DNA of 5,170 bases from assembly GCA_002393895.1 (NCBI GenBank), contig DGUE01000099.1:1-5170 (forward strand), written 5' to 3'. Source of the DNA: Bacteroidales bacterium UBA4318 (GTDB lineage Bacteria > Bacteroidota > Bacteroidia > Bacteroidales > UBA932). The position numbers and the translations under genes were made by a program. Of this stretch, positions 1 to 5,170 are shown piece by piece; within the stretch, counting starts at the first letter, position 1, and each line of letters starts with the position of its first letter. Under the pieces are notes generated by a model. That model saw nothing but the letters and a program-made list of their open reading frames with translations, was not told the DNA's origin and searched no databases.

Positions 1-739
1 AGTCGTTCGGATATTTGGCGTGGAATTTAATCACATCCTCTATGGCATTGCGGAATTTAGTGCCTTCGGGGATGGTCTTGAGCGCCTCGCGCACCAAGGT
101 GGGGATGTCGTCGCAGACGTAGGCCAGCGAGTAAAGGGCACTCACATACACGCCGCCGTACCAGCCGTCTCCGTAGTTCATGATATGACCGATGCGGTCC
201 GCGATCGCGGCGGCATCGTTGGGGCGTCCCGGGGTGAGCATGCCTATGAAGTCGGCCTCGATCTGGAAGTCGATGTCATCTGCATGGGGATTGTATTTCC
301 AGTAGCCGGATTCCGGGGCACCGCGCCCGTTGAGGATGTTGTAGCGCGCAGCCTGGTTGGCGTGCCAGAGCTTGTAGGGAGCGTTTGCGAAACGGTCGGC
401 GAACTCGGAGGCCGGAGCCTCGATGCCCAGTTCTGCCATCACCTCCAGGAAGGTCAGGTCCATATACACATCATCGTACAGGCCGGGATCCTCCACGAAG
501 GTCTCGCTGATGTAGCTGTCGCTCCAGAAGATAGGTTCGGCATCCTGGATGAGCCCACCCTTGAACTTGAATTCGGTGGGGCCGCCGTAGGTGCAGCCTA
601 TGGTCTGTGCGAACCATCCGCCGCGGATGCGGTCCATCATATCCTCTTCACCCATGCGGACGGTCTGCCCGTATTTGAATGAAGGGCCGGCGCAGGAGGC
701 CAGGAGTAGGAGGAAAAGTGGTATAATTGTTTTCTTCAT
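1..739 (-). CDS. Third exported ADP-ribosylglycohydrolase-fold lipoprotein, N-terminal part (C-terminus off the window)
   Basis: The frame is open from ATG at 739 to the left edge, giving 246 residues. The start is followed at once by a lipoprotein signal (MKK, Leu-rich core, lipobox LASC with Cys16). The protein follows its upstream neighbour closely along its visible length: GGWFAQTIGCTYGGPTEFK at 40-58, LYDDVYMDLTF at 88-98, the WHANQAARYN segment, APESGYW, NPHADDIDFQIEADFIG at 150-166, GHIMNYGDGWYGG, and a closing KFHAKYPND matching KLHKKYPRD in the neighbour. It thus belongs to the same DDVY/HADD subtype and probably arose by tandem duplication, followed by clear divergence. The second Asp motif (DSDCN-like) and any accessory domain would lie beyond position 1, so catalytic competence cannot be judged. 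It is the third ARH-fold gene in a row and is probably cotranscribed with the others. Confidence 0.92.
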   Translation of the reverse strand, partial: MKKTIIPLFLLLLASCAGPSFKYGQTVRMGEEDMMDRIRGGWFAQTIGCTYGGPTEFKFKGGLIQDAEPIFWSDSYISETFVEDPGLYDDVYMDLTFLEVMAELGIEAPASEFADRFANAPYKLWHANQAARYNILNGRGAPESGYWKYNPHADDIDFQIEADFIGMLTPGRPNDAAAIADRIGHIMNYGDGWYGGVYVSALYSLAYVCDDIPTLVREALKTIPEGTKFRNAIEDVIKFHAKYPND

Positions 740-740
740 A

Positions 741-767
741 AGATTCCTTCGTTTCACTCGGAATGAC
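741..767 (-). repeat. Imperfect palindromic intergenic repeat, dispersed Bacteroidota-type hairpin
   Basis: On the minus strand this 27-base element starts GTCATTCCGAG and ends GAAGGAATCT. It can fold with an outer stem ATTCC (764-760) against GGAAT (747-743), a tandem G-A/G-A internal element, and an inner two-pair stem GT/AC closing a GAA loop (757-751). From memory, a very similar element, with GC/GC in place of GT/AC, is scattered between genes in many Bacteroidota and metagenome-derived genomes. The identification is by recall, and only this one copy is in the window. It fills nearly the whole gap between two cotranscribed genes, so it would appear in the mRNA. Confidence 0.6.
744..749 (-). 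promoter_or_regulatory. Possible Shine-Dalgarno sequence AAGGAA for the third ARH-fold gene, inside the repeat
   Basis: AAGGAA sits four bases before the ATG at 739 and lies in the 3' arm of the palindromic repeat. It is the only purine-rich SD-like site among the three starts in the window; the other two have none that is convincing. If the hairpin forms, it would cover this site. Bacteroidota often initiate without an SD, so its use is uncertain. Confidence 0.35.
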
Positions 768-770
768 AGG

Positions 771-2378
771 TTAATTATGATAGTAAGTGTCCGGCGCGGG
801 ATGCTCGGAATAATACTGTATTGCGTTGATTCTCAGAAGGTACTGGGAAGGGTCGGGGTTGCGCCAGACCATCTTCACCTTGTGCCTTCCCTCGGGAAGG
901 AGATACTTCCAGGCGGGTTCCAGCTTGCGGGAGGTGCCCTTCATCGGGAGGATGGACAGCTGGTCCAGTTCGCCGTCTATCCAGACCTCTATCTCCGCCA
1001 CATACGGGTCGGCCTCCTCCGCCAGGGCGAAGACTTCCGAGCCCACATGCTTCTTGGAAACGCGGTCGGCGTAGCCCTTGCTGATGCCGCGAAGGCACAC
1101 GAGGTTGCCCCAGATGCAGAAGCCGTTGCCGCTGAAGTCGAACTCGTATTCGTTTTCCATCCAGGCATCCTTCTGGTCGCGGAAGATGGGATAGGTGTTG
1201 GTGAAATTCTGCTCGAGAGGCAGCACCTTCACCGGTGCGGCAGGGATGGTGACTGAGTCCCCGTCCACCTTGCCGCCGTTCTTCTCTATGAGCTGGAGGG
1301 CCTGGTTGAAGGAGTAGACGCTTCCCTTTGCGAGCGAAACATCTGTGCCTTCGAAGTCAAGGTCCCAGATCTCGTCGAGGGGCTCGCGCCAGAAGGCGGG
1401 GATGCCGCTCTTGCCGAGCATCACGCCCAGCACTCCGCCCACTGTGGCGGGGTTGCAGTCGGAATCCTGGCCGCAGCGGGTGGCAATCTCCATGGATTTG
1501 CCGAAATCGCCTTCACCATAGAGCATGCCCATCGCAACATATGCGGAGTTTATCTTGGCATCGATGTCGAAACTCAGGAACACTCCCTTGGGGCATCCGG
1601 TATCCGATCCCCATTTCTTGAGAATCTCGAACCAGCAGGCCTTCCAGTCGCGGGGGTATTTCTTGTGGAGCTTGCGCACGTCGTCGATGCACTGCCAGAA
1701 GGTGCTTTCTGCGGGGATGCCTTCAAGGGCCATATCCACCACCTTGGCGGGGTCGTTCTCGATGAAAGCTGCGGAATACAGGCCGGAGACGAAGGCTCCG
1801 CCGTAGAATCCGTCGCCGCTGTTCATGATGTGGCCTACCTTGTCGGCAATCTCAAGCGCCTGCTGCACCATTCCCGGGGCCATCAGGCCAACGAAGTCGG
1901 CTTCGATCTGGAAGTCCAGGTCGTCGGCGTGAGGGTTGTTGAGCCAGTTGCCGGATTCGGGGGGCATGATGCCCTGGCGCACGTTGTAGCGCCCGGCCTG
2001 GTTGGCGTGTGCGAGATGGTAGGGCGCGTATGCGAAGCGCATCGCAAGATCCTTGGAGCTGCAGTCCAGTCCGAGCTGCTCGAAGGCCTCGGCGAAGGTA
2101 AGGTCGTTGTAGACATCGTCGAAGAGCCCGGGCTTGCGGTCCCACCAGTGCTTCACATATCCTTCTCCCCAGGAAATGGGTTGATTGTCGGGGATGAGGG
2201 TGCCCTGGTGCTTGAATTCGGTAGGGGCGCCGTACACCACTCCTATGGTCTGCCCGGCCCATCCGCCCATGATCTTGTCCATCAGCGCATCCTTCGTGAG
2301 GATGGTCTCGGAGGTCCTGGGTGCGGAGCAGGCTGCGAGCAGGAGCGCGGCGGAGAGTATGATTCTACTGTGCTTCAT
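771..2378 (-). CDS. Exported ADP-ribosylglycohydrolase-fold lipoprotein, intact, with C-terminal beta-rich accessory domain
   Basis: This is a complete 535-residue protein. The start at 2378 is supported by an immediate lipoprotein signal peptide with lipobox LAAC (Cys17). The catalytic domain covers about residues 25-370: GGWAGQTIGVVYG at 38-50, a first acidic motif FDDVYND at 86-92 in place of the usual DDT type, PHADDLDFQIEADF at 149-162, and CGQDSDCNPATVGGVLG at 302-318 with metal-ligand candidates D305 and D307. Residues from about 380 to the end form a separate beta-rich region with a WIDGELD turn and LLPEGRHKVKMVW near 493-505, resembling a jelly-roll carbohydrate-binding module; this is inference from residue pattern. 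The protein should be anchored outside the cytoplasm by its lipid, so it would act on imported or surface-bound material. It overlaps the previous gene by 14 bases and is followed after 31 bases by a close paralogue. The true substrate is unknown; ADP-ribose release is only one option for this fold. Confidence 0.92.
   Translation of the reverse strand: MKHSRIILSAALLLAACSAPRTSETILTKDALMDKIMGGWAGQTIGVVYGAPTEFKHQGTLIPDNQPISWGEGYVKHWWDRKPGLFDDVYNDLTFAEAFEQLGLDCSSKDLAMRFAYAPYHLAHANQAGRYNVRQGIMPPESGNWLNNPHADDLDFQIEADFVGLMAPGMVQQALEIADKVGHIMNSGDGFYGGAFVSGLYSAAFIENDPAKVVDMALEGIPAESTFWQCIDDVRKLHKKYPRDWKACWFEILKKWGSDTGCPKGVFLSFDIDAKINSAYVAMGMLYGEGDFGKSMEIATRCGQDSDCNPATVGGVLGVMLGKSGIPAFWREPLDEIWDLDFEGTDVSLAKGSVYSFNQALQLIEKNGGKVDGDSVTIPAAPVKVLPLEQNFTNTYPIFRDQKDAWMENEYEFDFSGNGFCIWGNLVCLRGISKGYADRVSKKHVGSEVFALAEEADPYVAEIEVWIDGELDQLSILPMKGTSRKLEPAWKYLLPEGRHKVKMVWRNPDPSQYLLRINAIQYYSEHPAPDTYYHN
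2365..2378 (-). other. 14-base coding overlap between the first and second ARH-fold genes
   Basis: The third-frame segment of the upstream gene ends ELEVYEAQ and a TAG at 2367-2365, while the next gene begins with ATG at 2378. This overlap exists only if both frameshifts are repaired. Its neat operon-like geometry is independent support that the upstream gene originally read through to this point. Confidence 0.75.
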
Positions 2379-4136
2379 ATACTTCGAGTTCGGTTATGGA
2401 GATGAAGGCAGACACAGCCTTTGTATACTTGTGCCAGTGGATCAGCACGGCATCATCGCCAATCACGCGGATTGCGGTGGTCGTGACCTTGGGGAAGGTG
2501 AATACGAATTCCCCGTTGTGCGGCTGGAAGAAGACTTCGTCGCAGTAGGGCCAGTCCGGAGTAACCTTTGCATCCAGGGCTACCCAGTTGCCGTTTTCGT
2601 CCAGGTACTCGGGATGAAGGTTGCTGTACCATCCGCCGAATTCCTCCAGCGGTCCGTAGTGGAAGGAGATCATGTCTGTGGTGATGGGCTGTATCCCAGC
2701 GATAGCCGAAGTAATCCTGCTTGGGGGCGTTGGACTTGCTGCCCAGCGAGTAGAATGCCGCTCCGGGGCCTCCGGTGACGCCGTCGTTGATCACATCCAC
2801 GCTGTAGGCTCGGTAGCTTACAGGGATGGTGAGCCAGCAGGAATCCAGTGTTGCCCTGTCGGTCTCGCGGGTAAGAGCGAGGATTTCGGCTGCATCGGGT
2901 GCGAGGTTCCGTCCGCTCTTCTCGGGAAGAGTGAAAGCTTGCAGTGGGCTCATCGGCCTTGGCCTTGAAGCGGGCCTTGGGGTTGATGGTATAGATCTTC
3001 TCCCCATTTTCTTCACGCACCTTACCGCCGCGGGCGAGGATGTTCTTCTCTGCCAGCACTACGGTGCGCTCGATGATATCCTCGATGGAGGCGTCGGGCA
3101 TGTCGTAGCGGGTGACGTTGATGTAACGGTCGTTGAAGGGCTTGGTCCAGTGGGGGAATTCAGAAGGCATGGCGCGGTCCAGCGGAACTCCGCCAATGCC
3201 GTTGATGACGCCGAGAAGGCCGCACATCGTGGCGGTCTGGTTGTCGCAGTCGAATCCCATCGCGCAGCCGATGAGGAGGGTCTTGTCGATATCTCCTCCG
3301 CCATAGAGCAGGGAGAGGATGCCCATCGCGCCGTTGAGGTCGGCGTTCCATATGCTGCGGGTGATATCGGGCTCTTCGAAATAAAGCTTGTCCGCCATCG
3401 CCTTGCGGGCGGGTTTCCAGTCGTCGGGATTCTTCTTCCAGAGATCCAAACACTCGTCGATTATGGCGCGGAAGCGGTCTCCCTTGGGAAGATAGGCCTT
3501 GGCGTGCTTCACGAGAGTGGGGATATCCTTCTCGAAGAAGGCCTCGGAATACATCGCACCGTAAACCACGGTGGGGGAGACTGCCCAGTCGTCGGAGGTG
3601 ATGCGGGCCGCCCAGTCGGAGATGCCTGCGGCGTATGCGGGCATGCCGGGAGCGGTGTAGGCCCATATCTCATTGATGAGCTGGGGGTCGATCTGGAACC
3701 AGTGGGGGTTATACTCCTTCTTGCCTGTGAGAGGCGGGGTGAAGCCGTAGTGCATCAGGCCCAGGGCCGCACGGTTGGCAAGCCATACGCGGTCCCGGAT
3801 GTGATACATCCATTTCTCTTTCACCTGAGCGTAGGTAGGATCCACACCATACTGCTCCATCATCATCAGATAGAGATACTCCACGTCGGTGTCGTCGTCA
3901 GAGAAGGCTCCGTCCACGGCAGTCATCTTGCGTATGGCCTTGTTGAACACGAAGGGGCCTTCGCCGGGTTCTTCCACGAACTTGTTCTCATATTCGAGCC
4001 CGTAGATGTTGCCCACCATCTGGCCGAGCCATGCGCCGGCGATCTTGTTCTTGAGTTCGGTGCGGGTAATCTCTTTCTGCTGGCAGCAGGAGGCCGCGAG
4101 CAGGGTGACAGCCAATATATAAAGGATTCTTTTCAT
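2365..4136 (-). CDS. Exported ADP-ribosylglycohydrolase-fold lipoprotein with C-terminal discoidin-like domain, interrupted by two frameshifts
   Basis: The start is ATG at 4136, directly followed by a lipoprotein signal (basic MKR, hydrophobic stretch, lipobox AASC with Cys17). The catalytic domain spans about residues 25-370: GAWLGQMVGNIYG at 34-46, the metal-binding DDDT at 80-83 with D84, and GFDCDNQTATMCGLLG near 294-309, which matches the family's second Asp motif (D296, D298). Enzymes of this fold hydrolyse ADP-ribosyl or related N/O-ribosyl bonds using metal ions; the substrate here is unknown. Frame 1 makes sense through codon 396 (to 2949). One extra base near 2948 moves the sense to a second frame (2947-2693, 85 residues), and another near 2692 moves it to a third (2691-2365, 108 residues, TAG stop). 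The repaired protein would be 589 residues, with a galactose-binding/discoidin-like domain from about 410 to 588. Uncorrected, the frame runs on as Arg-rich nonsense to a stop at 2670. The catalytic part is intact, so an active shortened enzyme is possible; a sequencing error or recent decay is equally possible. Confidence 0.85.
2692..2692 (-). other. Frameshift site 2 in the first ARH-fold gene (one apparent extra base)
   Basis: The minus strand reads TGG GAT A CAG CCC ATC. Removing the single A joins YFGYRWD to QPITTDMISFHYG, a natural run in a discoidin-type domain (aromatic-W-D-x-P-x-T, then a strand). The downstream frame then continues sensibly to the TAG at 2367-2365 inside the start region of the next gene. 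There is no homopolymer at this site. The shift is in the same direction as the one 256 bases upstream, so the two do not cancel. Confidence 0.8.
2948..2948 (-). other. Frameshift site 1 in the first ARH-fold gene (one apparent extra base)
   Basis: The minus strand reads GAT GAG CCC ACT here. Dropping one C of the CCC triplet (plus-strand GGG at 2946-2948) joins KAKADE to PLQAFTLPEKSGRNLAP, which continues as a plausible discoidin-like domain. Without the correction the translation becomes rich in Arg, Pro and Ser, typical of a wrong frame. The exact base is uncertain within a few nucleotides. A short homopolymer is a common place for indel errors, but a real mutation looks the same. Confidence 0.8.
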
Positions 4137-4138
4137 TA
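4134..4138 (-). other. TAATG stop/start overlap between the SusD-like gene and the first ARH-fold gene
   Basis: The TAA stop (4138-4136) and ATG start (4136-4134) share one base, with no clear Shine-Dalgarno sequence just upstream. This arrangement usually means that ribosomes ending the first gene restart on the second. It ties the hydrolase to the importer in one transcript. Confidence 0.85.
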
Positions 4139-5170
4139 CTTTGTGAGGTTAGGGTTGGCTGCAAGAGCACTCTTGGGGATGGAAAGATTGAAATCCTTCT
4201 CTTCCTTGGCAGGCTTGTTCCACCATGCGCCCAGATACTTGCCGAAGCGTATCATGTCCTGGCGGTGCCAGCCTTCGACTGCAAGCTCGTGGGAGCGCTC
4301 CTGGTAGATGTTATCGAGGGTAAGGGTGCCGGCAGTGAAAGGTGTCAGGCCGGCGCGGGTGCGTATCTTCTGGAGGTCTGCGTTGCCAACGACTTCGCCG
4401 CCCTTGTTCTGGCGCACCATGGCCTCGGCGTACATCAGCACCACATCGGCGTAGCGCATGATGTAGAACTCGTTCTCCATGCCCACCTGGCCCCCGGTGA
4501 GGGTGCCGTCACTCTGATACTCCCATTTGCCTATACGGGCGCCCTGGAGGTCGGTGCGGTGTGTGGTGTAGGCCTCTTCGGGCATATAGGGATCGATCAC
4601 GTAAGGCACGGTGACCGTCTTCTCGGGATCGGACGGATCCGGCACGTCGATGGTAAGATTGTTGCCGGAGAGGTCTTTCATCTGTCCGAACATCCAGGTC
4701 CAGGCCTTGCGCTTGTCGCCGGTCTCGTAGCTCGTCATGAAGTCAGGCTGTGCCACTATGCCGTCCCAGGCGTTTGCGGGGATGCCCAGAGGCGCGCAGA
4801 GGGCCACGGGAAGGGTAGACATGTGGATGAGGAAGGCGTAGTGGTCGGATACGGTGTAGACGGTGCTGTAGGGGATGGCCAGGATGCCTTCCTCGCAGAA
4901 CTCGTTCTTAACCTTGAACATATCCTTGTAGTTGTCCACAATCTTGTACCAGCTTCCACCGTTGTTGTTTGTCATGATGTCCTTGCAGGCCGCTGCGGCC
5001 TCGGCCCATTTGGGCGTGCCGATCAGGAACTCCGCGTTGAGGTAGAGCTTCGCGAGGATGAAGTTGGCGACGCCCCTGGTCACGCGACCGTAGTATTCGG
5101 TCGTAGGCTCCACGGCGAGGTTGTCGATATTCTCCTTTATCTCGCTCTCTACGAAGTCGAAGATGAAGGC
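4136..5170 (-). CDS. SusD/RagB-family nutrient-binding outer-membrane lipoprotein, C-terminal part (N-terminus off the window)
   Basis: The frame is open from the right edge to a TAA at 4138-4136, giving 344 residues; the family usually has about 450-600, so the signal peptide and N-terminal part lie beyond 5170. SusD proteins are surface lipoproteins that cap a SusC TonB-dependent transporter and bind the glycan or other nutrient. Visible family marks are a TPR-like helical stretch (GVANFILAKLYLNAEF), the C-terminal block EFYIMRYADVVLMYAEAM, a following IRTRAGL segment, the ERSHELAVEGWHRQDMIRFGKY-type helix (E-R-x-x-E-L-A-x-E-G-x-R/H-x-x-D-x-x-R), and the closing IPKSALAANPNLTK. Most family members carry a few more residues after NPNL (commonly a Q-N-P-G-Y-like end), so this one stops early, exactly where the next gene starts. 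Its stop overlaps the next start by one base, indicating one operon. The substrate cannot be read from the sequence. The family call is firm. Confidence 0.95.
   Translation of the reverse strand, partial: AFIFDFVESEIKENIDNLAVEPTTEYYGRVTRGVANFILAKLYLNAEFLIGTPKWAEAAAACKDIMTNNNGGSWYKIVDNYKDMFKVKNEFCEEGILAIPYSTVYTVSDHYAFLIHMSTLPVALCAPLGIPANAWDGIVAQPDFMTSYETGDKRKAWTWMFGQMKDLSGNNLTIDVPDPSDPEKTVTVPYVIDPYMPEEAYTTHRTDLQGARIGKWEYQSDGTLTGGQVGMENEFYIMRYADVVLMYAEAMVRQNKGGEVVGNADLQKIRTRAGLTPFTAGTLTLDNIYQERSHELAVEGWHRQDMIRFGKYLGAWWNKPAKEEKDFNLSIPKSALAANPNLTK

What the first reader, a model, noticed from the sequence alone, without database searches (positions are those of the whole stretch)
1..5170. SusD-linked operon with three consecutive exported ADP-ribosylglycohydrolase-fold enzymes and no classical glycoside hydrolase in view
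Three lipoproteins with DraG/ARH-type motifs follow a SusD-like protein, with overlaps or a 31-base gap between them. Characterised members of this fold mostly act inside cells on ADP-ribosylated proteins or nucleotides. Here all three carry type II signal peptides and sit beside a nutrient-capture protein. This suggests a dedicated scavenging system for a ribosylated compound (ADP-ribose, ADP-ribosylated protein, nucleoside-type or other furanoside), or a repurposed fold acting on a glycan. As I recall, ribose-utilisation loci of Bacteroides can carry predicted nucleoside hydrolases and ADP-ribosylglycohydrolases, which gives partial precedent. A triplet as the main enzyme set is less familiar to me.
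Basis: partly seen in the sequence, partly recalled or inferred. Interest (0 to 1): 0.72.

Follow-up and report, generated by a model that had tools for sequence, protein, structure and literature searches.

The report
Ribose-harvesting operon with three unusual enzymes
This piece of gut-bacterium DNA belongs to a nutrient-capture operon that probably frees ribose from a larger molecule using three exported enzymes of a fold best known for removing ADP-ribose inside cells; the set is strictly conserved in its close relatives, but its real substrate is unknown.

The parts
4136..5170 (-). SusD-like nutrient-binding protein, 3' part (344 codons in view)
   Evidence: PF07980 E 2e-25; best tblastn match 91% to the SusD of locus L080
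2365..4136 (-). ARH-A: exported PF03747 enzyme with a C-terminal CBM32-like domain in intact relatives; in this contig interrupted by two small insertions near 2940-2950 and near 2690
   Evidence: PF03747 E 2.1e-28 for the 488-aa frame 4136-2670; orthologs 586-664 aa; DNA alignment with L080, L002, L001; model of the L080 ortholog
771..2378 (-). ARH-B: exported PF03747 enzyme, 535 aa, with a C-terminal beta-sandwich domain
2..739 (-). ARH-C: exported PF03747 enzyme, N-terminal part only (runs off the window; relatives 494-530 aa). ATG at 739 preferred to GTG at 757
   Evidence: PF03747 E 1.1e-23; 98% identical to the L080 ortholog over the part seen

Best explanation
The window is the middle of a ribose-utilisation locus (RUS-type polysaccharide utilisation locus) of a Bacteroidales bacterium close to rumen and gut MAGs. 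SusC/SusD import a ribose-bearing compound; in the periplasm the esterase(s) remove acyl groups, and the three ARH-fold enzymes cleave its glycosidic bonds, ARH-A (with a CBM32-like domain) probably on the larger substrate, ARH-B and ARH-C on smaller pieces; freed ribose crosses the inner membrane by the RhaT/ureide-permease-like carrier and is phosphorylated by ribokinase; a LacI-type repressor senses it. Shown: gene content, order and conservation in relatives, predicted folds, conserved motifs, ribokinase membership. Inferred: periplasmic location, catalysis, ribose as the product. Guessed: that the substrate is an acylated, glycan-like ribofuranoside and not an ADP-ribose conjugate, and the division of labour among A, B and C.
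For: Cassette conservation among the 80 loci kept of 204 found, counted only where flank suffices: ARH-A 74/74, ARH-C 75/75, esterase 73/73, SusC+SusD 68/68, ribokinase 63/66, permease 53/55, LacI 52/62. Ribokinase over the equivalog cut-off and close to solved ribokinases (4x8f, E 9.5e-74). Nucleoside hydrolase, which frees ribose, directly before ribokinase in the cassette of L029, and outside the LacI gene in L010 and L025: 3 of 80. Permease homologs share a 4-kb piece with ribokinase in 27 of 30 Bacteroidaceae loci; the other 3 are triple cassettes. Smaller loci pair a B/C-type ARH with ribokinase: L092 (ribokinase, ARH, PF01156 nucleoside hydrolase, permease), L091, L093, L094, L132, L146, L158. 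ARH fold by models of A and B. Motifs kept in all intact orthologs: A 68/68, B 79/79, C 76/76. Esterases keep GxSxG in 72/72 and 11/11 and resemble solved feruloyl esterases (7xrt). ARH-A domain like CBM32. B/C-type relatives fused to GH92 (L168) or beside GH106, GH92, GH30, GH35. B and C are each one clade; A is one clade at lower support, 91/92.
Against: No assay, no expression data. The 80 loci were fetched by likeness to ARH-B, so conservation holds for that set only; 124 further relatives were not returned. B/C-type ARHs are not tied to ribose in general: of 33 matches in 201 Bacteroidaceae genomes, 6 belong to three triple cassettes and 3 lie by ribokinase/permease; 19 of the other 24 were fetched (some cut short by contig ends) and none of the 19 pieces has ribokinase or the permease. 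In the window's nearest relatives the permease is not in the cassette (absent in L002 and L080; found elsewhere in 2 of 5 such genomes). Metallophosphoesterases beside single ARHs (L157, L158; also L173, whose ARH lacks the full signature) and nucleoside hydrolases would also fit nucleotide-like substrates. The window's own ARH-A is broken.
Confidence: 0.58

Rival explanations
1. Scavenging of ADP-ribose conjugates, poly(ADP-ribose) or other nucleotide-like ribosides: the ARHs keep the activity typical of their fold, outside the cell.
For: Fold match to ARH3, ARH1 and DraG; the catalytic-type Glu and Asp positions are kept; nucleoside hydrolase in the cassette of L029 and beside it in L010 and L025, in the single-ARH operon L092 and in two loci of the permease/ribokinase core, L131 and L136; metallophosphoesterases beside single relatives. 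Odds raised from 0.20 to 0.22.
Against: Thr positions of the canonical TDDT/DxDT sites are replaced in every B and C ortholog (their role as metal ligands is recalled). tblastn with two metallophosphoesterases found none in the 80 loci, and with three nucleoside hydrolases found 3 loci; Nudix was not searched. Recurrent esterase, CBM32-like domain, and GH92 fusion in the B/C clade.
Confidence: 0.22
2. The ARHs act on a sugar other than ribose (for example another furanoside decorating pectin or mannan) and the ribokinase homolog phosphorylates that sugar.
For: B/C-type ARHs occur with GH106, GH92, GH30, GH35 and uronate lyase-like genes without ribokinase in view; GH127 follows the cassette in 4 of 80 loci; rhamnose genes adjoin the cassette in L002.
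Against: Ribokinase is over its equivalog cut-off; its permease partner recurs with it, also with nucleoside hydrolases.
Confidence: 0.13
3. The ARH-fold proteins are binding proteins or structural parts without catalysis, as happened to other members of the fold.
For: Altered metal-site residues; proteins of mitoribosomal and motor complexes are among the structural matches (6sga, 8xks).
Against: Acidic pairs are kept in 68, 79 and 76 orthologs and the Glu in the rows aligned; no other glycosidase recurs in the cassette.
Confidence: 0.05

Closest known systems
Ribose-utilisation systems (RUS) of Bacteroidota, B. thetaiotaomicron Rus locus BT2803-2809
   Same: Ribokinase, TonB-dependent SusC, SusD, DMT-type permease, exported hydrolases, regulator (locus content from passages of PMC10434189, and PMC12596196).
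   Different: There the named hydrolase is a nucleoside hydrolase, with a DUF4969 protein; here three ARH-fold enzymes and CE1-like esterases (nucleoside hydrolase in or beside 3 of 80 cassettes). I recall that Glowacki et al. 2020 mention ADP-ribosylglycohydrolases in other RUS; the paper is not held, so this is unchecked.
ARH3 / DraG / ARH1 ADP-ribosylhydrolases (PF03747)
   Different: Exported, about 490-660 aa with C-terminal domains (CBM32-like in A, beta-sandwich in B), 10-17% identity over the fold, F/Y-DD-x-Y and DSDC (B, C) or SDDDT and D-C/A-DN (A) in place of TDDT and DxDT.
CE1 feruloyl/acetyl xylan esterases
   Same: The cassette's esterase matches solved ferulic acid esterases (7xrt E 3.7e-35).
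   Different: About 200 further C-terminal residues of unknown role; much less conserved than the ARHs between L080 and L072 (34% against 55-64%).

Membership tests
PF03747 ADP-ribosylglycohydrolase family | Score over Pfam's curated cut-off | tested here: met
   All three window proteins and the intact L080 orthologs of A and C
PF03747 ADP-ribosylglycohydrolase family | ARH fold | tested here: met
Canonical ADP-ribosylhydrolase (ARH1/ARH3/DraG) | TDDT and DxDT metal-site motifs (recalled; seen in the canonical relative L100_7) | tested here: not met
   Replaced in all 68, 79 and 76 orthologs, with the acidic residues kept
Canonical ADP-ribosylhydrolase (ARH1/ARH3/DraG) | Hydrolysis of ADP-ribosyl bonds | not testable with these tools
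   Needs purified enzyme
Ribose-utilisation system (RUS) | Ribokinase in the locus | tested here: met
   63 of 66 assessable related loci; the window itself does not reach that far; TIGR02152 met in L080
Ribose-utilisation system (RUS) | SusC/SusD pair and inner-membrane permease | tested here: met
   68 of 68 and 53 of 55 related loci; permease missing from the cassette in L002 and L080
Ribose-utilisation system (RUS) | Induction by, and growth on, ribose sources | not testable with these tools
   Needs culture
CE1-like esterase | PF00756 and GxSxG nucleophile | tested here: met
   Pfam on two proteins; GxSxG in 72/72 and 11/11. Gene lies outside the window

The most novel reading that the evidence does not exclude
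The exported B/C-type ARH clade (signature GGPTEF/GAPTEF, F/Y-DD-x-Y, GxDSDC) is an unrecognised family of glycoside hydrolases acting on glycans, possibly alpha-ribofuranosidases, and the strictly conserved A-B-C-esterase cassette is a dedicated machine for a ribose-containing, acylated polysaccharide common in rumen and gut that no one has named as a nutrient.
Probability: 0.33. Interest if true: 0.75.

Novelty: new variant of a known kind. Interest (0 to 1): 0.5.

Why it matters
If right, a fold known for intracellular ADP-ribose removal has been recruited as an exported foraging enzyme set, with changed metal-site residues. It would point to a ribose-bearing substrate in rumen and gut that is not on the usual list of dietary glycans, and would give function to many genes now named ADP-ribosylglycohydrolase (7902 proteins at E up to 0.001 for ARH-B alone). 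My ten searches of the held papers listed none that I recognised as a study of such a locus; I saw listings and, for five papers, passages only, and most subscription journals are not held.

Full report
What is in the window. The 5170 bases hold one operon on the minus strand: the 3' end of a SusD gene (5170-4136), ARH-A (4136-2365), ARH-B (2378-771) and the first part of ARH-C (739-2). All three enzymes match PF03747 well over its cut-off. ARH-A is broken: against L080, L002 and L001 the window carries two small insertions, near 2940-2950 and near 2690, so the family sequence continues in other frames. The broken protein is listed only for one 5170-base contig, while full-length relatives fill the list. 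Whether this is a sequencing error or a pseudogene is open.

The full locus. No genome is held for the window. A scan of genome contigs with an ARH-B profile confirmed 204 places, of which the best 80 were returned. I called open frames, clustered them and placed each gene family by tblastn. The order is LacI regulator, ribokinase, permease (upstream or downstream), SusC, SusD, ARH-A, ARH-B, ARH-C, one or two esterases, often a small DUF4595 or fn3 lipoprotein (families on representatives). Counting only loci whose flank reaches far enough: ARH-A 74/74, ARH-C 75/75, esterase 73/73, SusCD 68/68, ribokinase 63/66 (missing: L019, L028; on the other strand in L023), permease 53/55 (missing: L002, L080), LacI 52/62. 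The loci come mostly from rumen and gut MAGs, with a few from a reactor and other sources, and from named species such as Bacteroides xylanisolvens XB1A, B. pyogenes, Alistipes muris and two Hallella species. The set was chosen by likeness to ARH-B, so these figures do not speak for more distant relatives.

Ribose. The kinase is a ribokinase by NCBIfam (L080, 355 bits, cut-off 299.65) and by likeness to solved ribokinases. A nucleoside hydrolase stands directly before ribokinase in the cassette of L029, and one lies outside the LacI gene in L010 and L025; no other of the 80 loci showed one. In 201 Bacteroidaceae genomes the permease was found in 37; of 30 pieces of up to four kilobases fetched, 27 hold ribokinase too and 3 belong to triple cassettes. 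In 20 wider pieces the hydrolase around this core varies: nucleoside hydrolase in L131 and L136, one B/C-type ARH in L132 and L146, neither in the other 16 by my queries. L092 has ribokinase, ARH, nucleoside hydrolase and permease in one operon. This is the pattern of ribose-utilisation systems: passages of PMC12596196, PMC10434189 and PMC11699363 describe the B. thetaiotaomicron system. The founding paper (Glowacki et al. 2020) is not held; I know it by recall only, including my impression that it mentions ADP-ribosylglycohydrolases in some variants.

Location. Lipobox pattern in 45/68 A, 62/79 B, 68/76 C orthologs; acidic surface-export signals almost absent. I infer periplasmic work after SusCD import; the surface is not excluded.

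Substrate. For a glycan-like target: the esterase in every assessable cassette, the CBM32-like domain, GH127 after the cassette in 4 loci, and the B/C clade's other company: GH106 in a genome near the window (L095), GH92 adjacent (L162) and GH92 fused (L168, with L164 and L174 alike over full length), FG-GAP repeats fused (L163, L169), GH30 (L161), GH35 (L166), a heparinase/alginate lyase-like gene (L155), SASA esterases (L132, L158). In one search, 10 of 33 matches lie in open frames over 1000 aa; I fetched 5 of these and ran Pfam on 2. Of 31 relatives checked for the signature, 28 carry it; L171, L172 and L173 do not. For a nucleotide-like target: the fold itself, nucleoside hydrolases in L029, L092 and beside L010 and L025, metallophosphoesterases beside L157, L158 and the more distant L173. 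Of the 33 matches, 6 belong to three triple cassettes (ARH-A seen in each: L072, L175, L176), 3 lie by ribokinase or permease, and none of 19 further pieces fetched shows either. I weigh the glycan reading higher, without proof.

Verdict. It is a new variant of ribose-utilisation loci built on a divergent ARH clade.

Noticed in passing
window 2365-4136: ARH-A is interrupted by two small insertions relative to close relatives.
   Followed up: partly
L168:9153-12644 (also L164, L174): A 1163-aa protein joins a B/C-type ARH domain to a GH92 N-terminal and catalytic domain; L164 and L174 align over full length.
   Followed up: partly
L163:8586-11858 and L169:2959-6213: ARH-C-type domain fused to FG-GAP repeats (Pfam on L163; L169 aligns over full length), with a LacI-type gene next to it.
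   Followed up: partly
L029:804-1754; L010:34-723; L025:32-721: Nucleoside hydrolase-like genes (43-47% to the L131 protein) at the start of, or just outside, the triple-ARH cassette.
   Followed up: partly
L095-L099: The five genomes nearest the window carry a fourth exported ARH elsewhere; in four of these five pieces (not L096) a protein of about 935 aa follows, GH106 by Pfam in L095.
   Followed up: partly
L002:15472-18140: L-rhamnose isomerase and an FGGY sugar kinase follow the cassette on the opposite strand.
   Followed up: no
L153:8753-9772, L154:488-1510: In two genomes near the window the ribose-type permease lies outside the cassette.
   Followed up: no
L081, L082, L083: ARH-A-like genes in three genomes overlap or adjoin genes that look to me (by eye, no family search) like glycogen or starch enzymes.
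   Followed up: no
L158, L132: Single-ARH ribokinase loci share SASA esterases and DUF4434 proteins; L158 adds a metallophosphoesterase fused to DUF4434.
   Followed up: partly
L010, L018, L025, L061: A GH127 family gene follows the cassette (Pfam on L018 only).
   Followed up: partly
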